A stretch of DNA of 64,000 nucleotides from Ruminococcus bicirculans (ex Wegman et al. 2014) (lineage in GTDB: Bacteria; Bacillota; Clostridia; Oscillospirales; Ruminococcaceae). Below, piece by piece: positions 8,068 through 39,539 of this stretch (positions are counted from its first letter, which is position 1; each line of letters starts with the position of its first letter). The stretch is from the NCBI RefSeq assembly GCF_000723465.1, contig NZ_HF545616.1, positions 1,364,001 through 1,428,000 of the forward strand, written 5' to 3'. The notes below the pieces were generated by a model. It saw only the letters and a list, made by a program, of their open reading frames with translations. It was not told the DNA's origin and searched no databases. The position numbers and the translations under genes are program-made.

Positions 8068-8595
8068 ATGCTTGGCGTGTGTATGGCATTGATCGATGAT
8101 GAAAAAGATAAAAAGGCTTTTGAAAAGCTGTATAATAAATACAAAAATAAAGTTCATGCAATATCCTTGAATATATTAAAAAATGAACAACTTGCTGAGG
8201 AATCAACTTCTGACACTTTTTTATCGTTGGCTAAATGTTTTCAAAAAATTAAACATTTAGAATATCACAAATTGGATTATTACATTGTCATAACCAGTAG
8301 GAACATGGCAAAGAATATATCTAAAAAGGAAAAAGAAAATTTAATGACGGTTTCCTACGATGATGATTCTTATTTTGTAAATGAAAATATGTCATGTTAC
8401 GAATTTGAATTTTTGAAAGGTTGCATAAAGAAACTGAAAGTTGACGATCAAGAGATTCTTTATTTAAAGTTTTCGTGTGGACTTGAATATTCTGAAATCT
8501 CAAAAACGCTTGGCATTACATCTGCCACAGCAAGAAAACGTCTGCAGTATGCCAAAAACAGATTGAAGATATTACTTGAAAAGGGTGATTTATAA
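8068..8595 (+). CDS. ECF-type RNA polymerase sigma factor
   Basis: The 175-residue protein has the sigma-70 region 2 helix KAFEKLYNKYKNKVHAISLNIL and a region 4 helix-turn-helix LPEI-like stretch EYSEISKTLGITSATARKRL, with the SPxTAR-type SATARKRLQYAKNRLK end. It would redirect RNA polymerase to stress or cell-surface genes. The ATG at 8068 follows AGGATGTGATGAA; MALIDDE at 8083 is an alternative start. A membrane anti-sigma-like gene follows with one base between stop and start. The pair leads a cassette of exported proteins and an ABC transporter that it probably controls, by inference from position. Confidence 0.85.
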   Translation: MLGVCMALIDDEKDKKAFEKLYNKYKNKVHAISLNILKNEQLAEESTSDTFLSLAKCFQKIKHLEYHKLDYYIVITSRNMAKNISKKEKENLMTVSYDDDSYFVNENMSCYEFEFLKGCIKKLKVDDQEILYLKFSCGLEYSEISKTLGITSATARKRLQYAKNRLKILLEKGDL

Positions 8596-8596
8596 C

Positions 8597-9274
8597 ATGA
8601 ATAATTTTTCATATTTTTCAAAAGCTCTCGATGAAGTCGTAGATGCCAGATTGGATGATTATGTTGAAACTCTTGAAGTAGACAAACGATATGAATTTTC
8701 GGAAAAGTACAATAAAAAAATAAACAAACTTATAAAACACAGAGAAAAGCCGTATTTTACTCTTATATGCACGACCGGCAGACGTGTTGCTTGTTTTGTT
8801 ACAGCATTGTTGATCCTATCATTTTCTTCGCTTAGCGTAAAAGCTGTGAGAGAGGCAGTTTGTAATTTCTTTATGAATATTTTTTCAGACCATACGGAGA
8901 TTATAGCAGACAGTGAAATTGAGAATTCATATCCGCATTCGATTGACGAGGAATATCATATATCTTCACTTCCAAATGGATTTAAACAAGTCGACTATGA
9001 TAAAATGGAAAATTCAATTATAATAACATACTTCAAGGATGATGATTATATCTTTTTTGAACAATACACAAAAGATGCATATCTTAGTAATTATGATAAT
9101 GAACAGTCAACATTTGAATCATATACAGATGAAAACGGACAAGAGTATCTAGTTCATAATACAGATCATGATCATACATTTATATGGGACAATGGTAAAT
9201 ATATTTTTGAAATATGCAGCAACTTAGACAAACGATCTGTGTTGGAATTGTGTGAATCCACAAAAATAAAGTAA
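8597..9274 (+). CDS. Membrane anti-sigma-like protein (DUF4367-type)
   Basis: The 226-residue protein has a charged cytoplasmic N-terminus of about 75 residues, one membrane helix (VACFVTALLILSFSSLSV), and an extracytoplasmic domain. The latter contains the pattern ISSLPNGFKQVDYD and IIITYFKDDDYIFFEQYTK, typical of DUF4367 proteins paired with ECF sigma factors. The ATG at 8597 is the first with a ribosome site (AAAAGGGTGA). Coupling to the sigma gene supports an anti-sigma role. The family name is from memory of the motif. Confidence 0.75.
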   Translation: MNNFSYFSKALDEVVDARLDDYVETLEVDKRYEFSEKYNKKINKLIKHREKPYFTLICTTGRRVACFVTALLILSFSSLSVKAVREAVCNFFMNIFSDHTEIIADSEIENSYPHSIDEEYHISSLPNGFKQVDYDKMENSIIITYFKDDDYIFFEQYTKDAYLSNYDNEQSTFESYTDENGQEYLVHNTDHDHTFIWDNGKYIFEICSNLDKRSVLELCESTKIK

Positions 9275-9318
9275 ATTAATAAAAACATATCACAAACAAA
9301 CAATTTTCATTGTCATAG

Positions 9319-9357
9319 TAGGTGTAGGAGAAAATAAATCTCTTGCACCTATTTTTT
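9319..9357 (+). terminator. Terminator after the sigma/anti-sigma pair
   Basis: A 12-bp stem with one mismatch and one wobble pair (TAGGTGTAGGAG at 9319-9330 with 9340-9351) is followed directly by six T residues. It lies 45 bases after the anti-sigma stop and could also attenuate read-through into the exported-protein genes. Confidence 0.75.
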
Positions 9358-9375: not shown

Positions 9376-9805
9376 ATGTAAGCAAAAAGTGATATCTACA
9401 ATTATATCGGTTGTTATTATGCTATGCTTGTCACTTACAGCTTTTGCCGAAACCGAACTGCAAACGCCTTCTGACGATGACATTTCTGTTTGTTATTTAT
9501 ACACAGATAAAATATCAGGTACATTGTCAATCTCCAACAAGGCTGCAACTTGTAAATCCACTGTACGTGGTATTTCAGGTACAACTACTAAAATCGTTAT
9601 AACTCAAACACTTCAGAAGAAAAATGGATCTTCATGGAATAAATACAGTAGTTGGACAAAAACATTCAACAGTTGGTATGCGATTTATTCAAATTCCAAA
9701 GAGTCTTTAAGCAGCGGTACTTATCGTGTAAAGACAGTTGCTAAGGTCTATAATGGCTCTGCCTATGAGACCATAACTATTTACAGCAAAACAGCGTCCT
9801 GCTAA
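9376..9805 (+). CDS. Small exported protein with frameshift at the start codon (DUF6147-like)
   Basis: The open frame from a GTG at 9389 encodes a signal peptide (ISTIISVVIMLCLSLTAFA) and a ~110-residue mature beta-rich domain. That domain contains SGTTTKIVITQTLQKKNGSSW and SSGTYRVKTVAKVYNGSAYE, resembling DUF6147-type secreted proteins of Ruminococcus. The expected start is the ATG at 9376, six or seven bases after AAAGGAGG, but it reads ATG TAA. Removing the single T after ATG would give MKQKVISTIISVVIML, an ideal signal peptide. So the gene carries a 1-base insertion, or starts at the poorly placed GTG 20 bases from the ribosome site. Confidence 0.65.
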
Positions 9806-9933: not shown

Positions 9934-10368
9934 ATGAAAAAGATCGTTAAGAGAATCGCAGCTATGGGTGCTGCTGTTATGATGATGAGTTCTATGGCTA
10001 TTGGGGCGAGTGCGTATGAAGCCATAAAATACGGCAGAGCAGTTGGTGGTTCTGGCTCAAATGCTTATATTTCATGTTTTGTAACAGGAATAAGAACAAA
10101 TTCAACTGTAGCTGGTCAAGCTTGGACTAGGACATCAAGTAACAATAACAATGTTTACAATCCAAATTGTAAATACAGCGGTTATGTTTATGCAAGTGCC
10201 TCTGTTGGTGGTACTGGTTGTGGATCATCTCATTCTGACACAGGTAAAATTGAGCATTCGTTTGGGTTAAAAGGTTGTACATCTTCAAAGTTAGTAAAAA
10301 CTGTACATATTTATAATGATAAGGTACATGGCAATTACAGCACAACGCTTTCCGTTGATAGTCAATAA
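9934..10368 (+). CDS. Small exported protein, bacteriocin-like layout
   Basis: The 144-residue precursor has a classic signal peptide (KKIVKRIAAMGAAVMMM then GASAY) almost the same as that of 33243-33611. The mature ~115 residues are rich in Gly, Ser, Thr, Asn and Tyr, with five or so cysteines (ISCF, NPNC, TGCG, KGCT) that could form disulphides. There is no lipobox or sorting signal, so it should be released. It is followed by a membrane-anchored propeller-like protein and an ABC exporter. I do not recognise the family; a bacteriocin or structural secreted protein are both possible. Confidence 0.75.
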   Translation: MKKIVKRIAAMGAAVMMMSSMAIGASAYEAIKYGRAVGGSGSNAYISCFVTGIRTNSTVAGQAWTRTSSNNNNVYNPNCKYSGYVYASASVGGTGCGSSHSDTGKIEHSFGLKGCTSSKLVKTVHIYNDKVHGNYSTTLSVDSQ

Positions 10369-10387: not shown

Positions 10388-11590
10388 ATGAAAACTAAAA
10401 TTATTATCGCAACAGCCGCAGTTATAATTGCCGCAGTTGCAGTTACACTTTTCATTTCTCTTGGCACAAAATCCGATAAGGCGGTTTCTTTTGAAAAGGG
10501 TCAACAAGAACTTTCTGCTTCTCCCACAAACCTTTTGTGTCCTGAAGCTTCTTCTACTGCATTTGCAAACAATTTTGTGTATTACAAAACCTATGACGGC
10601 ATTGCAGAATATGATATCGAATCCGACAGCCTTGCAATGATAAAGGTCAAGCTTCAAGAGTATTCAAACTTGTCCTGCTATACCATATATGACGGCGTTA
10701 TATACGCTGTAAGGTCAGTGTATAATTCTGCTACGCAAAAAGAAGATTACAGCATTGTCACAGTGGATTACAACAGCGGTGAAGTCACGGAAGTGTATTC
10801 TGCACCAAAGGACAGCATATTAGGCTGTATGTCTATGGACAAAGACGGAGATATCTATTTTGTTGAGGGCAAATACAAAAAGAGCGAGACCGACGAGAAC
10901 GGATTCAGCACAGGCTATTCGCTATATAAATACGCTCTCAAAAACTCTGACAAAAGCGAGATAACAAAAGCCAATACCTATTACATAAGCGACGGCAAGC
11001 TTTATTTTACAAGGCTTTGCCCAAAGACGGATACAGTCCGCCTATTTATAGCTCCACTTTCAGACCCTCAGAACGTCAAGGATACAGGCATTGATGTTGG
11101 CTCTCAGATAAGCGAAAATACGCCGTATATGTATTATCCGACCGACGGAGATGTGTATTACTCTAATGGCGAAAACAAGCTGTATAGGTATAATGAGGAT
11201 AATGAAAAAAGTGACACAGTTTGCACTTTTAAAGACAAATCTTTTGTAAGATATTTTCAGTATTTCAATAACACTATGATAGTGCTTGTTCGTGAGCCAA
11301 ATGATAATGGCAAAATGTATCAGTATGTGCTTTATTATCTTGATAACGATAATAAACCGCAGAAGATAATTGATGATGCTAAGCTCAATGAAAAGTATTT
11401 TTACGGCTATGAGTATATCGACTATATGACGATATTCAATAACTGTGAGGATTATTTCCTGCTTTCGACCTATGATCCCGACGCTGATACAGCCGCTTAT
11501 CTTGTGGATAAAGATTTTAAACTGCACAAGTTTATTTCAAACGGCGAATGGGATTATGATACATATGCAGAGATACAGTCAGAAATGTAA
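10388..11590 (+). CDS. Membrane-anchored beta-propeller-like protein
   Basis: The 400-residue protein has an N-terminal anchor (IIIATAAVIIAAVAVTLFIS) and an extracytoplasmic domain of repeated Tyr/Asp-rich strands such as NFVYYKTYDGIAEYD, GDIYFVEG, DGKLYFTR and GDVYYSNGENKLYRYN. These are typical of DUF5050-type propellers. No lipobox cysteine is present, unlike its counterpart at 33697-34860. It lies 20 bases after the exported-protein gene and just before the ABC permeases, so it may bind the exported product at the membrane. That role is inferred. Confidence 0.7.
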   Translation: MKTKIIIATAAVIIAAVAVTLFISLGTKSDKAVSFEKGQQELSASPTNLLCPEASSTAFANNFVYYKTYDGIAEYDIESDSLAMIKVKLQEYSNLSCYTIYDGVIYAVRSVYNSATQKEDYSIVTVDYNSGEVTEVYSAPKDSILGCMSMDKDGDIYFVEGKYKKSETDENGFSTGYSLYKYALKNSDKSEITKANTYYISDGKLYFTRLCPKTDTVRLFIAPLSDPQNVKDTGIDVGSQISENTPYMYYPTDGDVYYSNGENKLYRYNEDNEKSDTVCTFKDKSFVRYFQYFNNTMIVLVREPNDNGKMYQYVLYYLDNDNKPQKIIDDAKLNEKYFYGYEYIDYMTIFNNCEDYFLLSTYDPDADTAAYLVDKDFKLHKFISNGEWDYDTYAEIQSEM

Positions 11591-11616: not shown

Positions 11617-12816
11617 TTGAAACTTCTCAGATTTATGATAAGAAAAGATATGGCGAAGTCAGCTTTGATAAGCTTATTGCTGGCTTTGCTTTCCTGCGCC
11701 TTTTTGATATCTGTACTCAGACCCTCTTATGCTTATGGTGAAAAATACATGACCTATCTTAAAGGCGACTCGGAAACTGTAAGCCAAGACGCTCAAAAGC
11801 TTGCTGATGAGCAAAACGCTCTTAACAACGAGATAAACGACTATCAGAATAACCACAACACAGGCGGTGTAAAGCAGGCTGAATTGCCTGTGGAGCTTGA
11901 GGAAAAGATAATAGATTTTTCTCAGAAAAATTCTCAGGCTGGTGTGGGTCTTGACAGTATGTTTTCTCTTATTGAAGGGCAGCTTTACGCTCAGCAAAAC
12001 TCTTTGAAGCTCATATCCGAGCGTGTGAGAGGTTACAGCCGAAATGCAAGACGTGGCGTTACGGATGAGTATTCTTTGAAGCTTTCCGACAAGCTCATCA
12101 GCGATTACAACGCCGTGATAACAGACCTAAAAAAGTCGGACGATATCATTGACACCAGAGCCGCTGACGGCTTTGAAAACTATATGTCATCGGAAATTTT
12201 GATACCGTTCGGCGTTTATTTGCTTCTTTTCAGCATATTTTCATCAGAGATACAAAGCGGCAGGATAAAAAGCTTTGGAATAACCAAAACGGGCGTGAGG
12301 AAATTCTCACTTTTCAAGCTTTGTACCGGCTTTGTTGCTGTAATAATTCTTGTTTTGATAATTTACACTGTGGATATTATAACTCTTTTTATTTACGATA
12401 CAAACGGCATTAAACTTGATATGCCATTGCAATATCTGAGCGGTTTTGAACTAAGTTCGGCGAATATGAGCTTTGGCGGATATCTAGTTGCAGTATTTGC
12501 CGCAAAACTTGTTTATGCGCTTTTCACCGCAAGTATTGTTATGTTTCTTTCAATGCTTTGCAGAAAGACCATACTTGCAGGAGCTGTCTGTCTTGTGCCA
12601 ATATTTGTACCATTATATCTGAAAACCACAAGTTTTTCCAATCCTGCCGTTGACATTTTAACAGGCAATTACACCAATATGCTCAATGACACAGGTTATA
12701 TGAATTTCTGGGGAATACCTGCACGAGAATACGTTGTTTATTTTGCTATCATATTCATCATGACCGCATTTTTTGTCGCAGGGACATATCTCCTTGCTGA
12801 AAGGCAGGTGGGATAA
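11617..12816 (+). CDS. ABC transporter permease (first of two)
   Basis: The protein of about 399 residues has one N-terminal membrane helix (SALISLLLALLSCAFLISVL). A long extracytoplasmic helical region with coiled-coil character (residues ~45-190) follows, and then about five membrane helices, an ABC-2-like layout. A TTG at 11617, seven bases after GAGGTG, is the best start; the ATG at 11635 and TTG at 11602 are alternatives. The stop overlaps the next ATG by one base. The partner permease and ATPase follow, so the three should form one transporter. Confidence 0.75.
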   Translation: MKLLRFMIRKDMAKSALISLLLALLSCAFLISVLRPSYAYGEKYMTYLKGDSETVSQDAQKLADEQNALNNEINDYQNNHNTGGVKQAELPVELEEKIIDFSQKNSQAGVGLDSMFSLIEGQLYAQQNSLKLISERVRGYSRNARRGVTDEYSLKLSDKLISDYNAVITDLKKSDDIIDTRAADGFENYMSSEILIPFGVYLLLFSIFSSEIQSGRIKSFGITKTGVRKFSLFKLCTGFVAVIILVLIIYTVDIITLFIYDTNGIKLDMPLQYLSGFELSSANMSFGGYLVAVFAAKLVYALFTASIVMFLSMLCRKTILAGAVCLVPIFVPLYLKTTSFSNPAVDILTGNYTNMLNDTGYMNFWGIPAREYVVYFAIIFIMTAFFVAGTYLLAERQVG

Positions 12817-13910
12817 TGAAAAGTATGTATAGTTATCAGACTTCACGGCTAATAAAGAAATTCTGGCTGCTTTTTGTCATAGTGATAATTTTTTCAGCTT
12901 CCGCAAAATTCACAGTGTATCGGAGCTTTGTTTCTTCAAATAATCTTACCTATATGAACAAAGAAACGGCGGAGATATACAATGAACTTATAGAAAATTC
13001 CGCAGATAAGACCCTTGAACAGTGTGACGAATACATAACGGAATATGAGATGAGAAGTTACGCAAGCGGTTATAATAATAACATTACAGCCGCCGTGAAC
13101 AAATATAAAACAGAGCTTCGCAGTTGTTTTATGGTCGAAAGCATCAGAAGCTATGCACGCACGGGAAGAGGTCTAACAGACGCTAATATTCCCTCTGACC
13201 TTGTGAAAAACAGCCGACTTTACGCCGCCTTTCCAACACCGCAGGTGATAAATGACGAGCCGTTTTTGAAGTTTCTTGAATTGCAGGCGGTAGATATCAT
13301 GCCTATATTTGTGCTTCTGCTTGTGGGCGTTTTTGTTGCAGATAGTTATGAAAAGAGAATGGATCAGCAGATAAAGATATCTAAAAATTCGTCAGCGTTT
13401 TTTAAGTCACGGGAGATAATTTTATCAGTGGCGATATTTATAATGTTCACACTGAGCTTTTTTGCAGACCTTATTATAAGCGGAACATTACATCAGAGCA
13501 AGTACAGCACCTCATCTTTACAAAGCGTGTGGCAATTTGACCTTGCGCCTTTAATGCTAACTGTTAGAGGCACAATAATATGGCTATATGTCACAAGGCT
13601 TATGTCGCTTTTTATAACCTACGGCATTTTCGTGCTTGTGGCAAAGCAAGTGCGCTCTGTGAAAAAATATGTTATGCTGACCTCTGGGCTGATAGCGGTC
13701 ATGTCCGCCGCCGCACATTATGTGGGAGCACTTTCGCCTTATATGTTTGCGGCTGTCACAAGCGTAAATGGGCAGCTTAACAACCTTGACTATATGAGGG
13801 CTTTTGATTGTTCGGAAGCGGTAGCTGTATTCATATATCTTGCAGCGATTTTGAGCGGACTGACTGCATGGAGATACAGCGGATATTATGAAAAAAGCTT
13901 TGACCGATAA
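12816..13910 (+). CDS. ABC transporter permease (second of two)
   Basis: The 364-residue protein has the same arrangement as its neighbour: an N-terminal helix (FWLLFVIVIIFSASAKF), a large extracytoplasmic loop, then several helices (MPIFVLLLVGVFVADSY, IILSVAIFIMFTLSFFADLI and others). The ATG overlaps the previous stop as TAATG, implying coupled translation. It probably pairs with the upstream permease as a heterodimeric membrane part. No substrate can be assigned from sequence. Confidence 0.75.
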   Translation: MKSMYSYQTSRLIKKFWLLFVIVIIFSASAKFTVYRSFVSSNNLTYMNKETAEIYNELIENSADKTLEQCDEYITEYEMRSYASGYNNNITAAVNKYKTELRSCFMVESIRSYARTGRGLTDANIPSDLVKNSRLYAAFPTPQVINDEPFLKFLELQAVDIMPIFVLLLVGVFVADSYEKRMDQQIKISKNSSAFFKSREIILSVAIFIMFTLSFFADLIISGTLHQSKYSTSSLQSVWQFDLAPLMLTVRGTIIWLYVTRLMSLFITYGIFVLVAKQVRSVKKYVMLTSGLIAVMSAAAHYVGALSPYMFAAVTSVNGQLNNLDYMRAFDCSEAVAVFIYLAAILSGLTAWRYSGYYEKSFDR

Positions 13911-13924: not shown

Positions 13925-14779
13925 ATGAGCGTTTTAAGAGTAGAAAACTTATCCAAAAGATACGGCAAAAAGCAGGTGCTCAAGGGCATAACCTGCGAAT
14001 TTCATACGGGCATAAACGCTTTGCTTGGACCAAACGGCGCAGGCAAGACCACCATAATGAACTGCATATCGGGCGTGATAAAAAAGTCGGGCGGCAGCGT
14101 GACCCTTGACGGGCAGGACGTTTTTGAAATGGGCGAGAAATATCGTGAAAAGCTGAGCTTTCAGTTTCAGTATCAGCCATTTTATCCAAGCTACACCGCC
14201 CATGAATTTCTCAGATTTTCGGCTCTGTTAAAAGGAATGCCTGAGCCGCTTATTGAGGACGAGATAAGACGTGTGCTGGGGCTTGTGAATCTGTCTGAAA
14301 ATCTTGATGACAAGATAAAGTCATTTTCTGGCGGAATGAAACAGCGCCTTGCCATTGCACAGACTATCCTTAACTCCCCCGAGATACTGATTTTTGACGA
14401 GCCTTCTGCTGGTCTTGACCCATTTGAGCGTGAGCAGTTCAAGCGGATAATGGTGAAGCTCAAAGAAACAAGCATTATAATAATCTCAACACACATCGTT
14501 TCCGACATCGACACTATAACAGACGATCTTATCATCTTGAATAAAGGCTCAGTTATTGCAAATGACAGCCCAGAGGCGCTTTTTGAGCACATAAGGGGTA
14601 TGGTTTGGGATATTCCGAAAGCGGACATCGGTCTGCTGCCTATCGAGAACATTTATTATGAGGATACGAAGTCGAAGACTATCTCAAAGACAAAGCCCAC
14701 CCCTAACGCTGTTATGAGCGAGCCGACTATGAATGATCTTTATTTCTGCGGACAGCTTGACGGGGGAGTGTTTGAGTGA
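13925..14779 (+). CDS. ABC transporter ATP-binding protein
   Basis: The 284-residue ATPase has Walker A GPNGAGKTT, Q-loop QPFYPSY, signature SGGMKQR, Walker B ILIFDEPSAGLD and H-loop STHIVSD, and should be active. The C-terminal ~70 residues form the extra domain common in export-type ATPases of this class. A GGAGTGGTGATG ribosome site precedes the ATG. It closes the operon that runs from the exported protein through the two permeases. Confidence 0.9.
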   Translation: MSVLRVENLSKRYGKKQVLKGITCEFHTGINALLGPNGAGKTTIMNCISGVIKKSGGSVTLDGQDVFEMGEKYREKLSFQFQYQPFYPSYTAHEFLRFSALLKGMPEPLIEDEIRRVLGLVNLSENLDDKIKSFSGGMKQRLAIAQTILNSPEILIFDEPSAGLDPFEREQFKRIMVKLKETSIIIISTHIVSDIDTITDDLIILNKGSVIANDSPEALFEHIRGMVWDIPKADIGLLPIENIYYEDTKSKTISKTKPTPNAVMSEPTMNDLYFCGQLDGGVFE

Positions 14780-15745: not shown

Positions 15746-15769
15746 ATCAACACGGAAGTTGAAATAGCC
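15746..15769 (-). repeat. 24-bp exact inverted repeat, right copy
   Basis: This copy is the exact reverse complement of 7930-7953. The plus strand begins ATCAACACGGAAGTTGAA and contains the TCAAC-N6-GTTGA palindrome. It sits between the small leftward gene and the terminator of the arylsulfotransferase operon, marking the right edge of the cassette. Confidence 0.85.
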
Positions 15770-15787
15770 TAAACTCTCTGCAGTCTT

Positions 15788-30944: not shown

Positions 30945-32135
30945 ATGAATATAGCGGAAAAATATATGACGGATATGGAATTGAATGAACCAAGCAATCC
31001 ATTAGAAATAAATAAAACTGAAGATAAATTAAAAATTAAATTTCCGGAACAGTATAAAAAGTTTTTGCTATCTCATAACGGGGCTGAGGGTTCTATAGGC
31101 GAAAATTCGTATCTCGTTATATGGTCAATTGAAGATACGCTTAATTTTGTTTCATCAGTAAATTCAATGTCAATAAAAGAAATAGTTACGGAATCCGGAT
31201 TTGCTCGTTTTACGGTATTGATTTTTGCACAGGCATTATTCTTTATTTCAGTAAAGTTGATGCTGAAATTATTGGCAACGACTTCTGAGAACTTTAATGC
31301 AGTTGAGTGGATCGCTATTATATTAATACTTGCAATATCCATTATTATGATGTTCTTACTTCATTTGATAGCTATTGATTCAACGCAGAGACTCTATATA
31401 AACTTATTGATTTTAACGATAGTTGCAGTTAACATTATAATCTTTTATATGATTGATTCTATTTCTGTGAAAAATAATCAGAAAAAAGAACTGGAACTTT
31501 TAAAGGTCCAAGAGCAATACGGTCACCAATATATAGAGAATGCAAGTCAGCAATATGATTCGATAAGAAAGATTAGACATGATTTGAAAGATCAGTTGTC
31601 CGCTGTATATACAATGATAGCTCAGGGACACGCAGATGAATCAATGAAGTACATAGAGAAATATGTTAACGTTATATCAATCAGTGAAAGCTTTGTAAAT
31701 ACAGACAATTATATTGTAAATGCTATTATAAATTCTAAGTTTGCAGTCGCAGCGACAGAAGGAATCAGAACAAATTGCAGCTGCATTAAGAGCTTTGATG
31801 GTATAGATGATATTGATATGCTTCATATTTTAAGCAATACGCTTGACAATGCTATAACGGCTAGTGAAAAAATAACTGACGAGTCAGAAAGGTTCATTAA
31901 CCTTGACATCAGTAAAACAATGGACATATATAGAATAGTAGTCAGAAATGCAATAAATGAGTCTGTTTTAAAAAGAAATCCGAGCCTTAAAACAACAAAA
32001 TTAAATGTTCATAAGCATGGGTGGGGAATTAAAATAATACGAGAGATTGCAGAAAAATATCAGGGAAGATGTGAATTTTACGAATCGGATAAAGTGTTCA
32101 CATGTTTGATAACGTTAAAATCAACTTTACTGTAA
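30945..32135 (+). CDS. SMI1/KNR4 immunity fragment fused to truncated AgrC-like histidine kinase
   Basis: The 396-residue frame joins two unrelated parts. Residues 1-~60 match the start of SMI1/KNR4 immunity proteins (NPLEINKTEDKLKIKFPEQY, FLLSHNGAEGSIGENSYLV). From about residue 75 it is an AgrC-type kinase with only three membrane helices. It keeps the H-box IRHDLKDQ (His212), the N-box LSNTLDNAITASEKI and the GHL-type HGWGIKIIREIAEKYQGRC. Normal AgrC has six or seven helices, so the peptide-sensing half is reduced. The junction has no stop or frameshift. It lies 10 bases after the toxin fragment and before agrBD. No AgrA gene is visible. Confidence 0.75.
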   Translation: MNIAEKYMTDMELNEPSNPLEINKTEDKLKIKFPEQYKKFLLSHNGAEGSIGENSYLVIWSIEDTLNFVSSVNSMSIKEIVTESGFARFTVLIFAQALFFISVKLMLKLLATTSENFNAVEWIAIILILAISIIMMFLLHLIAIDSTQRLYINLLILTIVAVNIIIFYMIDSISVKNNQKKELELLKVQEQYGHQYIENASQQYDSIRKIRHDLKDQLSAVYTMIAQGHADESMKYIEKYVNVISISESFVNTDNYIVNAIINSKFAVAATEGIRTNCSCIKSFDGIDDIDMLHILSNTLDNAITASEKITDESERFINLDISKTMDIYRIVVRNAINESVLKRNPSLKTTKLNVHKHGWGIKIIREIAEKYQGRCEFYESDKVFTCLITLKSTLL

Positions 32136-32324: not shown

Positions 32325-32353
32325 TATAGTAAATAAAAGACTTGGTGGAAGTA

Positions 32354-32929
32354 ATGAAGAGATTAGTATCGATAATTTTGAATTTTATGATCAAGAATAA
32401 TGTAATTTCTAAGGATACAGAAGAAATAGAATTTTACAGATACGGAATAGAAATTACATTATCATCATTAATTAATATAGCCTTAATATCTATCATAGGT
32501 ATAGTAACAAATTATACTTTTGAGAGCACAATGTTTTTGGCAGTGTTCATTATAATGAGATCATTTACTGGGGGATATCATGCAAATACATATATTAAAT
32601 GTAATTTAGTGATCTCAATATCTTTTGTTATATTGTTGTTGATATTTAAAATAATAAGACATATTTCTTTAAAGTCAATTATACTAATTGCTATTTTTCA
32701 AGTAGTAACCATTGTTTTATTGGCACCGATTGAGAACAAGAATAAACCGATAGAAAATAGAACTGTCTATAAAATTATTTCTACCGTTTTATCAGTAGTG
32801 CTATCTGCAATAAGCATCGTATTAATTATAAAAGGTGTAGACCTAGGGCTAATAATTCTGCTGACTTTAGCCTTAGTTTCAATATTTATAATATACGCAA
32901 GATTTATGAAAAGGGGGGATTTCTTATGA
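32354..32929 (+). CDS. agrB: AgrB-type autoinducer processing endopeptidase
   Basis: AgrB is a membrane cysteine protease that trims the AgrD precursor and closes its thiolactone ring. The 191-residue protein has about six helices and the catalytic motif GGYHANTYIKC, giving His76 and Cys83, almost the same positions as His77 and Cys84 in Staphylococcus aureus AgrB. The ATG at 32354 follows GGTGGAAGTA; a TTG at 32342 overlaps the ribosome site. The stop overlaps the agrD start as ATGA. Confidence 0.93.
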   Translation: MKRLVSIILNFMIKNNVISKDTEEIEFYRYGIEITLSSLINIALISIIGIVTNYTFESTMFLAVFIIMRSFTGGYHANTYIKCNLVISISFVILLLIFKIIRHISLKSIILIAIFQVVTIVLLAPIENKNKPIENRTVYKIISTVLSVVLSAISIVLIIKGVDLGLIILLTLALVSIFIIYARFMKRGDFL

Positions 32930-33060
32930 AAATTAAAGTTGCTGTAGCAAAATCAGTCAAGGCGCTTGTTGGACATATGGCAAAGGCAGCCTGTGGTTCT
33001 GCATCACATTGGGGGGCATATCAACCTAAAGAACCTAAATTTAAGAAAGAAAAGAAGTAA
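32926..33060 (+). CDS. agrD: AgrD-type cyclic autoinducer peptide precursor
   Basis: The 44-residue precursor has an N-terminal amphipathic helix (KVAVAKSVKALVGHMAKA), a core starting at Cys23 (ACGSASHWGAY) and the conserved tail QPKEPK followed by a Lys-rich end. This matches the clostridial cyclic-lactone autoinducer pattern. By analogy with AgrD processing the ring would join Cys23 to a residue just before the QPK tail. If cleavage falls after Tyr32 the ring spans ten residues, larger than the usual five. It is translationally coupled to agrB. Confidence 0.88.
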   Translation: MKIKVAVAKSVKALVGHMAKAACGSASHWGAYQPKEPKFKKEKK

Positions 33061-33242: not shown

Positions 33243-33611
33243 ATGACAAAAATGGTTAAGAAGATAGTAGCTATGGGTGCTGCCGTAATGATGATGGCTT
33301 CGATTTCGGCTATGGGTGCGAGCGCATATACTGATCTCGAAAAAAACGGAGCGTATTGCACTGCTTACAAGAGTTCCTCAAGCAGCGTCTATGCTTCAAC
33401 ATCAACAAAGGACGGATCGAAAAAAACGGTAGGAGTTAACATCGTGCTTTACTATACAAAGAGCGGAAATACACTTAACACAGGTAGCGGCAACAGCTAT
33501 ACAAGAGGCGTTAGCACAACCTGCTCCACACCTTCCGGCGGAACGTTTAAAAGTGCGACAATAACACATAAATTAAACAACGCTACTGTATATACAGGTT
33601 ACTTGGTATAA
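33243..33611 (+). CDS. Small exported protein, counterpart of 9934-10368
   Basis: The 122-residue precursor has the signal peptide KMVKKIVAMGAAVMMMASI ending GASAY, nearly the same as that of 9934-10368. The mature ~92 residues are Ser/Thr/Tyr-rich and contain two cysteines (GAYCTAY and TTCSTP). They end with ATITHKLNNATVYTGYLV, which resembles the tail of lactococcin-972-type peptides only loosely. The ATG at 33243 follows GGAGGTATTTAAA. It lies directly behind agrBD and before a lipoprotein and an ABC transporter. Function is not established. Confidence 0.72.
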   Translation: MTKMVKKIVAMGAAVMMMASISAMGASAYTDLEKNGAYCTAYKSSSSSVYASTSTKDGSKKTVGVNIVLYYTKSGNTLNTGSGNSYTRGVSTTCSTPSGGTFKSATITHKLNNATVYTGYLV

Positions 33612-33672: not shown

Positions 33673-33696
33673 CTATAGAATATGGAGATAACCGAA

Positions 33697-34860
33697 ATGA
33701 AAATTAAAGCATTGATCGTAATGACCATGACCGCCGCTGCCCTGCTTCTGCCATCATGCGGAAAACAGCCGGATAAGACCTCGGACGCAAATGTAAACGA
33801 ACCCGTCGAATTCGGGGCGAATATAACCGTTTCCGACAGCTACGCTTTCAGGGAAAACGACGGCAGACTTTACCTCTGGGATTTGAAAACCAACAGCTAT
33901 GAGATTTTCTGCACACAGCCCGATTGTAAGCATCAGACCGCTGCAGAAAACGCCGATACAAAATGCTCGGCTGTCGCTCCAAAAGAGGGGTACTTTTATA
34001 ACTATGCTTTTCTTTATAACGATACGCTATACTCGATATGCACGGGCGAGCTGAACGAGTTTCTTATTTATACCGCCGATACCGACGGCATGAACAGAAA
34101 GCTTGCGTTTACCGCGGAACTGTCGCTTTGCACCATGGTTAATCCTGTGCTTGACGGCGGCAGACTGTTCTTTGTCGGCTCGGAATTTGAAATGAACGAT
34201 ACCGACAGTGTTGGATTGCGGGAGAATTATTCGCTCTGTTCGGTTGACCTTTCCGATTTTTCTTTTGAAAAATATATGGACATCGGCACTGCAAACGAAA
34301 CCGTGATCGGTAAGAAGAGTCTTTTGCTGTACAAAAACAAGATATATTTCCAGCACAGCGAATATTCCGAAAACAGCGTTCATTCCGCTGTCGAATGCTA
34401 TGATATCGACGGCTCGGAGAGGATGACGGTACTTGAAATGGAAGATTCCGTCAACGTCTGGCAGTGCAACGGCGGTAAAATGCTTTATGTCGTTTCCGAC
34501 GATGACGATTCCCATTCGCAGGTCTGCTCCTATGATCTCGACGGCGGTGGGACAGAGGTTTTGTTTAAACGGGACGGCTATGTCAGCGATGTCTGCATGA
34601 TCGGAAACAGGGTGTTTTATATGTACAGTACTGCGGACGGCAAAAGCGAGATACGCAGTGCAGGAGTGTTCGATACGTCGGACGGAAAAGACCTTACGAC
34701 CGAATTTGACGGCGATGTTTACGTATCGGTTCTGGGACACACGTCAAACGGGCATTTGATACACTATCAGGACTCCGAACGCGACAGCTTCGGACTGCTC
34801 TCCGACGAGGACTTTTGGAGTCTGAAATTTGAAAATGCCGATTTTAAATTTGAGCAGTAA
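33697..34860 (+). CDS. Beta-propeller-like lipoprotein
   Basis: The 387-residue protein has a lipobox LLPSC|G and repeated strands such as GRLYLWDLKTNSYEIFCTQP, GGRLFFVGSEFEMND and NKIYFQHSEYSE. It is the counterpart of the TM-anchored protein at 10388-11590, sharing layout and the Tyr/Asp-rich propeller style. The ATG at 33697 follows GGAGATAACCGAA; the ATG at 33682 lies within the ribosome site. GC content is visibly higher from here to 39539 than in the toxin region, suggesting a different origin. Confidence 0.72.
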   Translation: MKIKALIVMTMTAAALLLPSCGKQPDKTSDANVNEPVEFGANITVSDSYAFRENDGRLYLWDLKTNSYEIFCTQPDCKHQTAAENADTKCSAVAPKEGYFYNYAFLYNDTLYSICTGELNEFLIYTADTDGMNRKLAFTAELSLCTMVNPVLDGGRLFFVGSEFEMNDTDSVGLRENYSLCSVDLSDFSFEKYMDIGTANETVIGKKSLLLYKNKIYFQHSEYSENSVHSAVECYDIDGSERMTVLEMEDSVNVWQCNGGKMLYVVSDDDDSHSQVCSYDLDGGGTEVLFKRDGYVSDVCMIGNRVFYMYSTADGKSEIRSAGVFDTSDGKDLTTEFDGDVYVSVLGHTSNGHLIHYQDSERDSFGLLSDEDFWSLKFENADFKFEQ

Positions 34861-34874: not shown

Positions 34875-36443
34875 ATGGGTAAGAAAGAATATTTAGCCTG
34901 CCTGATCTCGCTGGTCATGCTCGGTCTAACAGCGTGCTCCGATAATGCAAACAAGACCGGCTCGGAAGTAAGCTCAGGTACTTCATCAGCCGAAGAAAAG
35001 GATTACGGTTACGGCTTTGACAAGTTCGGATTTTCGCGTTTTGACGTTGAAACGGCAGAATCCCTCACTTATGAAAATAAAACAAAGATCGTATATCTTA
35101 CAAACTACGATACGACCTTTACAACTACTGACGACGACCCGAGAATATACGATGAAATTTACATTGAAAACACTGTGAACGAGTATCTGGATAAAAACGG
35201 ATATGACTTTTACGTTGATTTTGTAATGAACGGCGAGTTTGATTTCAAAACGGGCGAGCTGTACCCAAACATGGACGTTTACGAAAGTATGCTCAAAAAT
35301 AACGAGCAGGTCGATATAGTCAACACGGGGCTGGGCATGAGCGCGCTGGGCGGTTACGGAGATACCTTTAATCTGTTTGTAGAAAGGGGTTATCTAGAAC
35401 CTTTGAACGATTATTTTCAGACCGACAGCGGAAAAGCGTTTTACGACGGGTTCGACGGCATAGTCTGGAAGCAGACGACCTGTGCCGACGGTATGATATA
35501 CGGAAAAACCACCGACTATACGCTTGCTCAGCCGCTGGTATTGTTGCTTAACGGCGATGTTTGCAACGAATACGGGGTAAATACAGACGATATCCAAAGC
35601 CTAGAAGATCTCGAGCCGTATCTGCAAAGCCTTGCGGACGAGGGGAAACGTGGTCTGCTGCTCGACAGCACCTGCGAACTGTATTATGAGATGGCGGGAT
35701 TTTGCAGATACAAGGGCGTGTATATCAACGCCGAAACGGGACTGGCGGAAAATATTTTCGAGAATGAAAAAGCCTTGAAATATCTCAAGACCGTATATGA
35801 ATATTCGCAAAATGGATATATATCAAACAACGTCGATATTGCGAACGACGCTTATATTTGCAGCCTGTCGCCGGCAATGCCGCTTTATTATGATTCGTCG
35901 AAAATCGTTTCAAGCGGATATTTGCAGCAGGAGGAACTGAACGGAGTCGTGGGGATATCGTCCTCTAGCAAGAACAAGGAAACGGCGTTTGAACTGCTCG
36001 CTCTGCTGAACACGGACGAAGAGCTTGCGAACATAATTTACAACGGCGCAGAGGGACGAAATTATGCGGTCAAGGACGGCGAAAAGTACCCGAACAAGAA
36101 CGCTCTGCCGTTTTACGACGTCGCCGCGACAATGACTAATTCCATTATCGCCGAAAGCAATTCGCAGGACAATCAAAGCAAGCGGGAGGATATTGCGATA
36201 TGCTGGGAGCATTCCGAGGTATCTCCGTTTTACGGTTTGGAGGTATCCGACGATCTTGCCGAAAAATTGGAGAAAACGGCGGCGGTCTATGACGATTTTT
36301 ACGGTCTGTTCTACGGCGATTACGGCGAATATCAAAGCCTTGACGAAGCCTTGTTCGCAGCAAATGAACAGCTGAAAGCCGCAGGAATAGACGAGGTTTT
36401 AAACGAGCTGAACGAGCAGCATGGAAAATTTGATAAAGAATAA
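34875..36443 (+). CDS. Extracellular solute-binding-like lipoprotein
   Basis: The 522-residue protein has a lipobox LTAC|S. A type-2 periplasmic-binding fold follows, with YEYSQNGYISNNVDIANDAY, NGVVGISSSSKNKETAFELL and an end AANEQLKAAGIDEVLNEL that is typical of DUF3502-type binding proteins. In this setting, beside an export-type ABC transporter rather than a sugar permease, it may capture a peptide or signal. GGGGAATGAGCA precedes the ATG. Confidence 0.75.
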   Translation: MGKKEYLACLISLVMLGLTACSDNANKTGSEVSSGTSSAEEKDYGYGFDKFGFSRFDVETAESLTYENKTKIVYLTNYDTTFTTTDDDPRIYDEIYIENTVNEYLDKNGYDFYVDFVMNGEFDFKTGELYPNMDVYESMLKNNEQVDIVNTGLGMSALGGYGDTFNLFVERGYLEPLNDYFQTDSGKAFYDGFDGIVWKQTTCADGMIYGKTTDYTLAQPLVLLLNGDVCNEYGVNTDDIQSLEDLEPYLQSLADEGKRGLLLDSTCELYYEMAGFCRYKGVYINAETGLAENIFENEKALKYLKTVYEYSQNGYISNNVDIANDAYICSLSPAMPLYYDSSKIVSSGYLQQEELNGVVGISSSSKNKETAFELLALLNTDEELANIIYNGAEGRNYAVKDGEKYPNKNALPFYDVAATMTNSIIAESNSQDNQSKREDIAICWEHSEVSPFYGLEVSDDLAEKLEKTAAVYDDFYGLFYGDYGEYQSLDEALFAANEQLKAAGIDEVLNELNEQHGKFDKE

Positions 36444-36459
36444 AACCGGAGAAAACAAC

Positions 36460-37332
36460 ATGACTCTCACCCTAACAAACCTCACCAAACAATACGGCAG
36501 CTTCACTGCCCTTCAAAACTTCAATTATGAGTTCACCGCAGGGGTGTACGGTCTGCTTGGACCGAACGGTGCAGGCAAATCCACCCTTATGAATATCATC
36601 ACCGACAATCTGAAACCAACTTCCGGCTCGGTGAAATTTGACGGCGTTGAAACAAGCACAATGGACGCCGACTTCCGCAAAATTCTCGGCTTTATGCCCC
36701 AACAACAAGGGATTTATCCAAACTTTACGCTGGAGCGTTTTCTCTACTATATGGCTGCCCTCAAAGGCATGAAAAAAGCTGACGCAAAGCCGCAGATAGA
36801 AAAGCTAATCAACCTTGTCAACTTGCAGGACAGCCGAAACAAACGCCTCGGCGGCTTTTCGGGCGGTATGAAACAGCGTGCCCTCATCGCACAGGCTATG
36901 CTCGGCGAACCGAAAGTCATTATCCTCGACGAGCCTACCGCAGGTCTTGACCCGAAGGAGCGTATCCGTATAAGAAATCTGGTGGCACAAATAGCTTTCG
37001 ACAAGATAGTCATAATCGCAACCCACGTTGTTTCGGATATCGAGTTTATCGCAAAAGAAGTCCTGCTGATGAAAAGGGGCGAGATAATCGACAGCGGTGC
37101 GCCTCATATCCTCTGCGAAAAGATCGACGGCAAAGTGTTCGAGATAACCGCCGACGAGAGTATGCTGGACGAAATTTCCGCAAAATACAAGGTGGGAAAT
37201 ATCTCAAAGGACGAGAAAAATATCTACGTCCGTGTTATCAGCGAACAGCCGCCAACTTACGAATGCAAAACCTGCAAGCCCGACCTTGAGGACCTCTACC
37301 TCTATTATTTCGACCAGGGGGCGAGCCGATGA
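36460..37332 (+). CDS. ABC transporter ATP-binding protein
   Basis: The 290-residue ATPase has Walker A GPNGAGKST, signature FSGGMKQR, Walker B VIILDEPTAGLD and H-loop ATHVVSD. The ATG at 36460 follows GGAGAAAACAAC; the frame is open back to 36421 inside the preceding gene. It is related to the ATPase at 13925-14779. The stop overlaps the permease ATG as ATGA. Confidence 0.9.
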   Translation: MTLTLTNLTKQYGSFTALQNFNYEFTAGVYGLLGPNGAGKSTLMNIITDNLKPTSGSVKFDGVETSTMDADFRKILGFMPQQQGIYPNFTLERFLYYMAALKGMKKADAKPQIEKLINLVNLQDSRNKRLGGFSGGMKQRALIAQAMLGEPKVIILDEPTAGLDPKERIRIRNLVAQIAFDKIVIIATHVVSDIEFIAKEVLLMKRGEIIDSGAPHILCEKIDGKVFEITADESMLDEISAKYKVGNISKDEKNIYVRVISEQPPTYECKTCKPDLEDLYLYYFDQGASR

Positions 37333-39539
37333 TCTTCATAAACGAACTGATAAAAGCGTTCTGCAAGCGCACAACTATTGCAATTTTCGCCGTTCTGCTG
37401 ATTCTCAACGGCGTTTTGCTGTATATAAACGAGACAAAACAGACGCTTGAGTACACCCCAGAGCAGTACAAAGCCGCTTATCAGACCATTGAGGGGCTTG
37501 ACACTCACACTGCTTTTGAGCGGATTTTGCAGAAAAAGACGGAGCTTGAGTTGATACAAAGGCTGTCATTTGGAGAGGATATTTCGCAGGAAAACTGCAA
37601 TGCTGAGGAACTTTTGAAAAGCTATAAAAACAAGGACTATCTTGAATTTACAAACGATATCTACCCCGAAATAGAGCTGACCGACCGCCTTTTTGAGGAG
37701 ATATCAGCCTGCGAAAATTATGACAGCTATCTTGAAAATATCGACAGCACCGCACGGAAAATGACGGGTATTTCGCTGTTTGCTGACCCTGACAGTTTCA
37801 GCTACAAAAATATCGCACGAACGCCTGCGGACTTCGCCCACCTCAAAGGCTCTAAGCTCACCGCCGCACCCTCAAAGGGCGTTTCAATGGCAACAGGTTT
37901 CATCGCCACCGACCTTATCGCAATGCTGATGATAATGACCGTGGTGGTGACGATAGTCACCCGTGAAAAAGAGCTTGACCAGATAACCCTCGCGCGCACG
38001 ACTTTCAAGGGCAGAATGCCGCTCGGTATCGCAAAGCTTTTCACCTGTTTTGCGGCGGCGATGGCAGCTGAGATCTTGCTTTACGCCGTGAACTTCGCAG
38101 TTTCATATTTTACATACGGCTTCGGCAATCTGTCAAGGCAGATACAGTCGGTATACGAACTTAACGGCAGTAATTTGAAAATATCCGTACTGCAATACTT
38201 TGCACTTTTCCTAGCGGCGAAACTTGCAGTTTACTGCGTATTTGCAACGATCATCTACCTTGTGACGGTGGTATCGAACACCGCTGTAAAGGTATACGGC
38301 GCGCTGATGATAACCATAGCGGCGGAAGCTGTGCTGTACTATACCATACCGAGCACCAGCTATCTTTGTCCGCTAAAATACATTAATATTCTTGCATACG
38401 CCAACACAAAAGACCTCTTCGCGAGCTATCTGAACCTCAATATTTTTGGAAAACCTGTGAACTATATGGCTGTGTTTGTCGGCTCGGCGATAGTATTGCT
38501 GCTCATATTGTCCATACTCTCCGTGCTGATTTTTTCAAAGCAAAGGGTTATTAAAAGCCGTACAAGAAAATTCAGCCTTGCAAAGTTCAGTATTTTCAAA
38601 GGCAGGACAACAAATCTCTTTTTGCAAGAGTGCTACAAGGTCTTTATCGGCGGCAAGGCTCTGCTGATTTTGATAGCATTTGCTGTCATCACCGCAGTTT
38701 CATATTCTCCTATCAGCGAGAGCTTTTCATCAGCGGACGAGGTTTATTACAAGCAGTATATGTTGAAATTTGAGGGCGAGTACACCGCCGAAAAGCAGAA
38801 AATGATAGACGCTGAGGCGCAGAAATTTGCCGACGCGCAGATGAAAATGTCGGAGGAAATGGCAAATTCAGATGGTGACGGTGTTTTCATAATGATGAAG
38901 TATCAGGATATACTTGCTCCGCAGTACGCCTTTGACGAGGTGAAACAGCACGCCGAATATTTGCAGACAACAGAGGATGGGCAGTTCGTTTATGACAGCG
39001 GCTACAAGCTGCTGACAGGCGGCGAAACCGCAGGAAACAAGGACTTAACGCTGGGTCTGACGGCAATGACAATGGTGATACTTTGCCTTACCTATGTCTA
39101 TGCCGCCGAGTATCAGACAGGTGCGAACGTTCTGCTGAAAACCTCCGCAAGAGGCAGAGAGGACACATTTCTCTGCAAGTTCGGCATAGGCGTTGTCATT
39201 GTGACGATGATTTTCGCACTGACCTATGCGCCGTACTTTTACAACGTGCTGAACGCATACGGCACAAGAGGGATAAATGCCCCAGCCTGCTCGATAGAAT
39301 CACTTTCAACTTTTGATATTTCTATCAAAGAATATCTCATTCTTATAAGCCTTGGGCGGTATCTCGCTTTGCTCTGCGCAATGCTCATCATCTATTTTCT
39401 GTCGGCAAAGCTCAAGAGTGTTATCTCGACATTCCTTGCAGCGACGGCGGTGCTTATTTTGCCGATATTGCTGGCTCTGCTGGGGATAGGCGTGTTTGAG
39501 TATGTCTTGCTGGATCCTATTTTGGTGGGGAATTTGTAA
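37329..39539 (+). CDS. Large two-part ABC permease
   Basis: The 736-residue protein looks like two permeases in one chain. Each half has an N-terminal helix, a long extracytoplasmic region and a helix cluster: TTIAIFAVLLILNGVLLYIN and ALLILIAFAVITAVSYSP start the halves. In the first cassette two separate genes (11617 and 12816) do this job. The size is near that of bacteriocin-associated integral membrane proteins, a loose analogy only. It ends the operon. Confidence 0.78.
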   Translation: MIFINELIKAFCKRTTIAIFAVLLILNGVLLYINETKQTLEYTPEQYKAAYQTIEGLDTHTAFERILQKKTELELIQRLSFGEDISQENCNAEELLKSYKNKDYLEFTNDIYPEIELTDRLFEEISACENYDSYLENIDSTARKMTGISLFADPDSFSYKNIARTPADFAHLKGSKLTAAPSKGVSMATGFIATDLIAMLMIMTVVVTIVTREKELDQITLARTTFKGRMPLGIAKLFTCFAAAMAAEILLYAVNFAVSYFTYGFGNLSRQIQSVYELNGSNLKISVLQYFALFLAAKLAVYCVFATIIYLVTVVSNTAVKVYGALMITIAAEAVLYYTIPSTSYLCPLKYINILAYANTKDLFASYLNLNIFGKPVNYMAVFVGSAIVLLLILSILSVLIFSKQRVIKSRTRKFSLAKFSIFKGRTTNLFLQECYKVFIGGKALLILIAFAVITAVSYSPISESFSSADEVYYKQYMLKFEGEYTAEKQKMIDAEAQKFADAQMKMSEEMANSDGDGVFIMMKYQDILAPQYAFDEVKQHAEYLQTTEDGQFVYDSGYKLLTGGETAGNKDLTLGLTAMTMVILCLTYVYAAEYQTGANVLLKTSARGREDTFLCKFGIGVVIVTMIFALTYAPYFYNVLNAYGTRGINAPACSIESLSTFDISIKEYLILISLGRYLALLCAMLIIYFLSAKLKSVISTFLAATAVLILPILLALLGIGVFEYVLLDPILVGNL

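What the first reader, a model, noticed from the sequence alone, without database searches (positions are those of the whole stretch)
8068..39539. Two parallel cassettes: exported small protein, propeller protein, ABC transporter
Cassette 1 (9934-14779) and cassette 2 (33243-39539) each begin with a small exported protein with nearly the same signal peptide. An extracytoplasmic propeller-like protein follows, then an export-type ABC transporter (two permeases in 1, one double-length permease in 2). Cassette 1 sits behind an ECF sigma/anti-sigma pair, cassette 2 behind agrBD. This suggests a family of secreted-effector or bacteriocin-like systems placed under different sensory control.
Basis: partly seen in the sequence, partly recalled or inferred. 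Interest (0 to 1): 0.75.

Follow-up and report, generated by a model that had tools for sequence, protein, structure and literature searches.

The report
Swappable secreted toxin-like gene cassettes
A gut Ruminococcus-type genome carries at least six gene sets that each make a small secreted protein beside its own membrane genes, with nearly the same export tag but unrelated bodies, which looks like an interchangeable arsenal of bacteriocins with self-protection.

Summary
The two cassettes are real and belong to a larger family. The genome holds six genes with nearly the same signal peptide and unrelated mature proteins (two in the window); each has an ABC ATPase 2.2-4.5 kb downstream on the same strand. 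Counting relatives too, 20 of 22 examined genes are followed directly by a lipoprotein or polytopic membrane protein (base rate 66 of 222). Cassettes 1 and 4 are 97.7% identical over 1,936 bp, and the identity stops at codon 28, the likely signal-peptidase site; a pair in genome G143 stops there too. Cassette 1 lies inside a 7,840-bp element with 24-bp inverted repeats, an 8-bp target duplication and an ISL3 transposase remnant. SP2 models as a beta-sandwich (pLDDT 95.6), its downstream lipoprotein as a beta-propeller. Best reading: Sec-exported bacteriocins with dedicated envelope immunity, working like mediterrocin/lactococcin 972 but matching none of their family models. Killing, immunity and regulation are inferred. 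ECF control is unproven (SP1 has its own perfect sigma-70 promoter match), and cassette 2's AgrC is truncated, with no AgrA seen beside it.

The parts
7922..7929 (.). 8-bp target-site duplication TAAACTCT, left copy
   Evidence: repeated exactly at 15770-15777
7930..7953 (+). left terminal inverted repeat of the ISL3-like element
   Evidence: 24 of 24 bases match the right end; 7 such ends in the genome, 0 for the reversed control pattern
8068..8595 (+). ECF-type sigma factor P0001; likely true start at the second ATG, 8083
   Evidence: Sigma70_r4_2 E 4.1e-9; region 2 just under its cut-off (22.4 of 24 bits); identity with cassette 4 begins at 8082
8597..9274 (+). anti-sigma-like membrane protein P0002 (DUF4367, one TM)
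   Evidence: DUF4367 E 5.3e-10; start at 8597 read
9317..9353 (+). terminator-like hairpin between anti-sigma and sp0
   Evidence: 15-pair stem with T tail; 5 such sites found in the region, 4.4 expected by chance
9389..9805 (+). sp0, small exported protein P0003 of the ECF module
   Evidence: homologues beside sigma/anti-sigma in L089 and L091, L041 and L042, L133, L147
9888..9916 (+). sigma-70 promoter match TTGACA-17-TATAAT with TG, in front of SP1
   Evidence: the only 12-of-12 match among 40 promoter-like sites in the region (25.9 expected by chance)
9934..10368 (+). SP1, small exported protein P0004 (bacteriocin-like)
10388..11590 (+). membrane-anchored propeller-like protein P0005
11602..12816 (+). 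ABC permease P0006
   Evidence: 6 TM; no credible Pfam family
12816..13910 (+). ABC permease P0007
   Evidence: 5 TM; homologues in 5 of 197 family genomes including its own
13925..14779 (+). ABC ATPase P0008
   Evidence: ABC_tran E 8e-28; 38% identical to P0012
14999..15412 (+). ISL3 transposase remnant
   Evidence: matches residues 62-117 and 338-399 of an ISL3 transposase of 399 aa; the part between is not matched
15746..15769 (-). right terminal inverted repeat of the ISL3-like element
15770..15777 (.). 8-bp target-site duplication TAAACTCT, right copy
30945..32135 (+). chimeric histidine kinase: SUKH-like N-terminus joined to AgrC from its residue 107
32342..32929 (+). AgrB
   Evidence: AgrB E 4.5e-34; 41% identical to AgrB of cassette 3
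32926..33060 (+). AgrD-like pre-peptide (ends CGSASHWGAYQPKEPKFKKEKK)
   Evidence: read; similar peptide at the same place in cassette 3
33243..33611 (+). SP2, small exported protein P0009 (bacteriocin-like, beta-sandwich)
33682..34860 (+). beta-propeller lipoprotein P0010
   Evidence: only DUF3502, E 4e-4, under its cut-off; the label rests on sequence style
36421..37332 (+). ABC ATPase P0012
   Evidence: ABC_tran E 2.7e-31
37329..39539 (+). double-length ABC permease P0013
   Evidence: 10 TM; homologues in 53 of 197 family genomes including its own

Best explanation
Each cassette is a Sec-exported, bacteriocin-like protein with its own self-protection set. The small protein (SP) is made with a near-constant signal peptide, exported by Sec and cut, and its variable body acts outside on neighbouring bacteria, most likely at the cell envelope. 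The gene or genes directly downstream (propeller lipoprotein, other lipoproteins, ABC permease and ATPase) protect the producer: the lipoprotein would bind or screen the toxin and the ABC would remove it or repair the target. New toxin-immunity blocks are joined to an existing promoter-plus-signal-peptide module by recombination that ends at the signal-peptidase site. Some cassettes travel inside non-autonomous ISL3-like elements. Shown by sequence: shared signal peptide, unrelated bodies, recurrent neighbourhood, sharp identity boundary, element ends. Inferred: killing, target, immunity, regulation, and that recombination made the boundary.
For: Six SP genes in the genome, all with an ABC ATPase 2.2-4.5 kb downstream on the same strand. 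Outside it, 7 of 16 SP genes examined have an ABC ATPase within 7 kb downstream (two of them share one). With the six own genes, 20 of 22 have a lipoprotein or polytopic protein as next gene, against 66 of 222 neighbours in the same kind of loci (binomial P about 3e-9). G143 has three SP-lipoprotein pairs in tandem (the first SP cut by the contig start), and G071 has two SPs with six lipoproteins, like orphan immunity genes. Identity boundary at the signal-peptidase site: cassettes 1 and 4, 97.7% over 1,936 bp ending at codon 28; G143 pair, 96.3% over 326 bp ending in codon 28; mature parts at chance level in both. SP2 is a confident 94-residue beta-sandwich. Experimental analogue: mediterrocin, a Sec-exported 89-residue bacteriocin of a gut Lachnospiraceae, predicted by its authors to fold like lactococcin 972, whose cluster has an ABC-domain protein and a putative immunity protein (PMC12345188).
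Against: No activity data. None of the six SPs matches a bacteriocin family in Pfam or NCBIfam, nor do the relatives scanned. Foldseek found no PDB match at E <= 0.001 for SP2, and no lactococcin 972 entry is among the 50 rows shown. In the wider permease family 23 of 35 named loci showed no clear small exported protein (several are contig ends), so the propeller-ABC set also exists without one. 9 of the 16 SPs outside the genome have no ABC ATPase within 7 kb (two of these lie within 2 kb of the end of the stretch fetched). In deeper relatives the exported slot seems to hold other folds (beta-trefoil-like by eye; RicinB_lectin_2 only E 0.13), which would also fit lectins or adhesins.
Confidence: 0.6

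Rival explanations
1. The SPs are defensive decoys or sensors: exported proteins that bind incoming antimicrobials or envelope fragments, while the propeller/solute-binding lipoproteins and ABC form a resistance pump of the BceAB/BcrAB kind, under stress (ECF) or density (Agr) control.
For: ECF plus anti-sigma genes beside three of six cassettes (1, 4, 6); lipoprotein plus ABC is also the make-up of resistance transporters (recalled); the permeases have long stretches between the first two TM helices.
Against: One pump would not need six unrelated exported bodies joined to one signal peptide; SP-lipoprotein pairs occur with no ABC ATPase nearby.
Confidence: 0.17
2. The SPs are surface lectins or adhesins (host glycan, plant fibre or cell-cell contact), and the neighbouring lipoproteins and ABC genes handle their ligands.
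For: Beta-sandwich and possibly beta-trefoil folds; Ruminococcus species live on fibre (recalled); a 547-aa exported protein stands beside an end of the same kind of element.
Against: By eye no sorting signal, dockerin or repeat in the SPs (sequences); the ABC sets differ between cassettes more than one uptake route would need.
Confidence: 0.13
3. The SPs are protein signals of a signalling system in which propeller and solute-binding lipoproteins are receptors.
For: agrB and agrD-like genes directly in front of cassettes 2 and 3; sp0 recurs beside the sigma/anti-sigma pair.
Against: Signals need conserved bodies, while the bodies are the variable part; Agr already supplies a peptide signal.
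Confidence: 0.1

Closest known systems
Mediterrocin (Mediterraneibacter gnavus), annotated as lactococcin 972 family
   Same: Sec-exported small protein (89 residues, AlphaFold model like lactococcin 972 by its authors) in a gut Clostridia member; cluster with an ABC-domain protein and a membrane protein taken as immunity (PMC12345188: outline, abstract, passages and section 9 seen)
   Different: SPs match no Lactococcin_972 model; permeases match no DUF1430 model; here propeller and other lipoproteins and ECF or Agr genes are added, and one signal peptide serves many unrelated bodies
Lactococcin 972 / streptococcin B three-gene loci
   Same: structural gene followed by presumed immunity and transport genes, thought to use Sec, beta-sandwich (PMC11796350, passages seen)
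   Different: no sequence match; several lipoproteins; no shared fold shown
Polymorphic toxin systems
   Same: variable toxin part, neighbouring protection gene, diversification by recombination with stand-alone cassettes (PMC3482391, start of abstract seen in search listings only; the constant trafficking part and orphan immunity genes are recalled)
   Different: the constant part is just a Sec signal peptide, so the mature product is wholly variable; the proteins are small and free
LanFEG-type lantibiotic protection transporters with LanI lipoproteins (recalled)
   Same: ATPase plus permeases plus lipoprotein beside a bacteriocin gene; TIGR03740 is among the best hits of P0008
   Different: score far under the cut-off (155.9 of 309.75 bits); by eye no lanthipeptide enzymes among the ORFs of the two cassettes

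Membership tests
Lactococcin 972 family | match to the family models (PF09683; TIGR01653 is recalled) | tested here: not met
   no such hit for any of the six SPs or for the relatives scanned, in Pfam or NCBIfam
Lactococcin 972 family | Sec signal peptide and small beta-sandwich mature protein | tested here: met
   SP2 only: signal peptide by sequence, model of 94 residues with eight strands, pLDDT 95.6; the other SPs were not modelled
Lactococcin 972 family | partner genes: DUF1430 permease and TIGR03608 ATPase | tested here: not met
   P0013 and P0007 have no Pfam hit and P0006 only a spurious one; P0008 scores 110.4 of 254.85 bits for TIGR03608; P0012 was not scanned in NCBIfam
Lactococcin 972 family | antibacterial activity, lipid II binding | not testable with these tools
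   needs protein
Polymorphic toxin systems | constant N-terminal part with variable C-terminal part joined by recombination | tested here: met
   identity boundary at the signal-peptidase site in two genomes; recombination itself is inferred
Polymorphic toxin systems | adjacent immunity gene, toxic C-terminal domain | not testable with these tools
   next gene is a lipoprotein or polytopic protein in 20 of 22; function not shown
ISL3-family element (cassette 1 carrier) | terminal inverted repeats and 8-bp target duplication (family values recalled) | tested here: met
   24 of 24 bp repeats; exact 8-bp duplication around cassettes 1 and 5, none around the third element
ISL3-family element (cassette 1 carrier) | intact DDE_Tnp_ISL3 transposase | tested here: not met
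   only a remnant matching residues 62-117 and 338-399 of a relative that is ISL3 by Pfam
Agr quorum-sensing system (cassette 2) | AgrB | tested here: met
   PF04647 E 4.5e-34
Agr quorum-sensing system (cassette 2) | full AgrC and an AgrA | tested here: not met
   kinase matches the AgrC-like protein of cassette 3 only from its residue 107 on; no response regulator gene seen beside it; cassette 3 has an AgrA-like regulator (E 7e-11, under cut-off) and an AgrC-like kinase (E 6e-5, under cut-off)
ECF sigma / anti-sigma pair | sigma region 4 and a membrane anti-sigma | tested here: met
   Sigma70_r4_2 E 4.1e-9, DUF4367 E 5.3e-10 with one TM; region 2 below its cut-off
Beta-propeller lipoprotein | propeller fold | tested here: met
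   P0010 model and Foldseek; P0005 by profile comparison only

The most novel reading that the evidence does not exclude
A human-gut type commensal keeps a polymorphic arsenal of free, Sec-exported toxins in which the signal peptide plays the part of the constant trafficking domain: toxin-plus-immunity blocks are exchanged at the signal-peptidase cleavage site, so every mature toxin is entirely new while promoter and export tag are kept, and ISL3-derived elements spread finished cassettes. The immunity set with a beta-propeller lipoprotein would be a new kind of bacteriocin immunity.
Probability: 0.45. Interest if true: 0.82.

Novelty: new variant of a known kind. Interest (0 to 1): 0.63.

Why it matters
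If true, it gives a concrete, testable set of new bacteriocin candidates (six in one genome, more in relatives) that the family models scanned here do not recognise, and a simple rule for how they diversify. Relatives of the cassette-2 permease occur in 53 of 197 genomes searched in the family, its own included, so the question of how gut Clostridia compete would gain a broad class of candidates. The propeller proteins P0005 and P0010 matched no named family in the Pfam, NCBIfam and PADLOC scans beyond chance hits; a pairing with a secreted toxin would give them a role.

Tried and rejected
Rejected: the ABC transporter as exporter of the small protein (Sec-type signal peptides on all six; by eye no double-glycine leaders). 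Rejected: membership in the lactococcin 972 family (models not matched). Rejected as a strong claim: ECF control of SP1 (own promoter match, hairpin between). Considered and dropped: plasmid or phage carriage (no hit of P0013 in plasmids; none of P0009 in phages; other pairings not run); anti-phage defence (PADLOC gave only generic ATPase-type hits to the two ATPases). SP1 and SP3-SP6 were not modelled: no homologues beyond the signal peptide were in hand for SP1, and there were only two structure jobs; the second went to the propeller. The structural aligner library was not available. The inverted-repeat pattern gave three single 3-mismatch hits in 196 other family genomes, taken as chance and not fetched. 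PDB sequence searches: one chance hit for the first SP alignment (E 2.6); for the propeller alignment the best was TolB, E 0.011. The gene caller and the signal-peptide, lipoprotein and TM calls in my scripts are crude (first start codon, hydropathy, simple lipobox rule), and counts depend on them. Of the 17 signal-peptide matches at E <= 1e-5 outside the genome, 16 were examined; one (G178, a 639-aa frame) was not fetched. For two of the 16 my caller listed no ORF over the match, so distances run from the match. One 391-aa neighbour is counted as a lipoprotein by its lipobox read by eye; the script missed it. The 66-of-222 base rate comes from loci already rich in such genes. The chance estimate uses 47 ATPase matches on the first contig; the six weakest of the 64 matches, and those on the second contig, were left out. 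In the 12-of-35 count I dropped by eye rows that were sp0, ATPase pieces or unlikely (L158, and the last row of L171).

Literature: ten searches ran, in CC-licensed PubMed Central papers only, and several listed only a part of the papers found (for example 10 of 253). No title or abstract start that was listed describes this system; that is no proof of absence. PMC12345188: outline, abstract, passages, section 9. PMC11796350 and PMC13289728: passages. All others: search listing only.
Full report
WHAT IS THERE. The window lies in a 2.97-Mb genome of two contigs, the first of 2.24 Mb. That layout fits Ruminococcus bicirculans, but this is recalled and was not tested. Among named records, 15 loci encode the cassette-2 permease at 53-72% identity, and 13 of these 15 are titled Ruminococcus. 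Cassette 2 runs: a chimeric Agr kinase, agrB, an agrD-like peptide, SP2, a propeller lipoprotein, a second 522-aa lipoprotein (missed), an ATPase, a double-length permease.

THE FAMILY IN THIS GENOME. A profile of seven SPs (SP1 and SP2 among them) found six good matches in the genome, E 1.2e-8 or better, then five of E 0.003 or worse. The six are the two in the window and four elsewhere. All six have nearly the same signal peptide; the mature parts show no significant similarity to each other. All six are followed by an ABC transporter on the same strand, with the ATPase at 2,199 to 4,452 bp; the chance for a random place is 0.039, so about 4e-9 for six. The transporters differ: cassettes 1 and 2 as above; cassette 3 has two FtsX/MacB-like permeases and a LolD-like ATPase (labels by sequence style) behind agrA-, agrC-, agrB- and agrD-like genes; cassettes 4 and 5 have lipoproteins, two permeases and a BcrA-like ATPase (87% identical over 600 bp of the ATPase genes); cassette 6 has two permeases and an ATPase. 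Cassettes 1, 4 and 6 have the sigma/anti-sigma/sp0 module; cassette 5 has no regulator gene beside it.

THE FAMILY ELSEWHERE. The permease P0013 has relatives in 53 of 197 genomes of the family, its own included; P0007 in 5 of 197. The signal-peptide profile matched 34 of 197 genomes at E <= 0.001; many of the weak matches lie in long frames. I examined 16 of the 17 matches outside the genome at E <= 1e-5: 7 of 16 have an ABC ATPase within 7 kb downstream (two share one), 9 of 16 do not; in 15 of 16 the next gene is a lipoprotein or a polytopic protein. With the six own genes it is 20 of 22; the two exceptions (cassette 1 here, and one in G113) are followed by proteins with a single membrane anchor. 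The base rate in the same kind of loci is 66 of 222, which gives a binomial P of about 3e-9. In G143 three SP-lipoprotein pairs lie in tandem, and in G071 two SPs stand with six lipoproteins, like orphan immunity genes. Among 35 named loci with the permease, 32 have the ATPase next to it or one ORF away (two of the other three are contig ends), 26 have a propeller-family lipoprotein by profile and 12 show a plausible small exported protein; 23 do not, though several loci are cut by contig ends.

THE IDENTITY BOUNDARY. Window 8082-10017 is 97.7% identical to cassette 4 over 1,936 bp. It starts one base before the second ATG of the sigma gene and stops at the last base of codon 28 of SP1, at the likely signal-peptidase site (cut after ASA, codon 27); beyond it the two are at chance level. 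Cassette 5 shares 104 bp with cassette 1, ending one codon earlier. In G143 two SP genes share 326 bp at 96.3%, ending in codon 28, with the mature parts at chance. In G113 the shared block (84%, 851 bp) covers sp0, the spacer and about the first 16 codons of the signal peptide. A boundary at or inside the signal peptide thus recurs in three genomes. The natural reading is recombination that puts a new toxin-plus-immunity block behind an existing promoter and signal peptide; no event was observed.

THE MOBILE ELEMENT. Cassette 1 lies inside 7930-15769: 24-bp perfect terminal inverted repeats, the 8-bp direct repeat TAAACTCT on both sides, and a transposase remnant at 14999-15412. The remnant matches two separate parts of a 399-aa transposase from genome G174 that is ISL3 by Pfam (DDE_Tnp_ISL3 E 2e-60). 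Cassette 5 lies in a like element (5,665 bp, TTTTAAAT on both sides). A third (4,491 bp, no matching flanks) holds a seventh cassette whose SP lacks the hydrophobic core of the signal peptide; a fourth right end stands beside a 547-aa exported protein. Seven such ends exist in the genome and none for the reversed control pattern. These ends belong to the elements just named, none with an intact ISL3 transposase among its listed ORFs. In 196 other family genomes there are three single 3-mismatch hits, not followed. Cassettes 2, 3, 4 and 6 do not show these ends.

STRUCTURES. SP2 without its signal peptide models at mean pLDDT 95.6 as eight strands, a beta-sandwich, with no PDB match at E <= 0.001 and no lactococcin 972 entry among the 50 rows shown. 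The P0010 lipoprotein models at 90.8 and hits propeller proteins. The 26 aligned members of its family share an invariant C-x4-C-x-H-x10-C stretch, unexplained.

HOW IT MOST LIKELY WORKS. SP is exported by Sec, cut, and acts on competitors; the lipoproteins and ABC protect the producer. The nearest tested system is mediterrocin (PMC12345188): an 89-residue Sec-exported bacteriocin of Mediterraneibacter gnavus whose cluster has an ABC-domain protein and a putative immunity protein. It works like that, but is not a member by the family models (six SPs scanned). Regulation is open: SP1 has a perfect sigma-70 promoter match with TG extension (9888-9916) downstream of a terminator-like hairpin (such hairpins are about as frequent as chance in the region), and the Agr kinase of cassette 2 is a chimera with no agrA seen beside it.

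VERDICT. Mechanism confidence 0.6; killing and immunity are inferred and need protein and strains.

Noticed in passing
window 30473-32135: A Pretoxin-HINT fragment (PT-HINT E 1.1e-6) is followed by a SUKH-type immunity domain fused in frame to an AgrC from its residue 107 on: a polymorphic-toxin remnant joined to the Agr kinase.
   Followed up: partly
window 33757-34857; alignment A5: The 26 aligned propeller lipoproteins have invariant C52, C57, H59, C70 (C-x4-C-x-H-x10-C), perhaps a metal site or disulfides; by eye this stretch is not in P0005.
   Followed up: no
window 27724-29060; L088 11904-13240; L173 4478-5814: A 1,337-bp stretch with two transposase-like ORFs, 100% identical in three places of the genome: between the two cassettes in the window, just after cassette 3, and in L173.
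   Followed up: partly
L174 4829-9319: Third ISL3-like element carries a seventh cassette whose SP gene lacks the hydrophobic core of its signal peptide.
   Followed up: partly
L173 7224-9440: A 547-aa exported protein stands beside a right end of the same inverted repeat; no left end found, so the element may carry other cargo.
   Followed up: no
window 9375-9400: The start region of sp0 differs from its 95% identical copy in cassette 4: the upstream ATG is followed by a stop, so a GTG start at 9389 is assumed.
   Followed up: no
window 9840-9848 and 33116-33124: CCAATGMAG lies about 90-130 bp before the start of SP1, SP2, SP4, SP5 and SP6; on the + strand of window 7001-40000 it occurs only at these two places. 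Possible shared regulator site.
   Followed up: partly
L074 (G132), L050, L055, L059, L060, L066: In deeper relatives the exported slot beside the same ABC type seems to hold other folds: beta-trefoil-like proteins and a possible cysteine-peptidase-like protein (by eye; Pfam weak or none for those scanned).
   Followed up: partly
window 15835-20967: Just outside the element: a 496-aa arylsulfotransferase-like ORF (recalled resemblance), an ABC importer set and a thioredoxin-like ORF.
   Followed up: no
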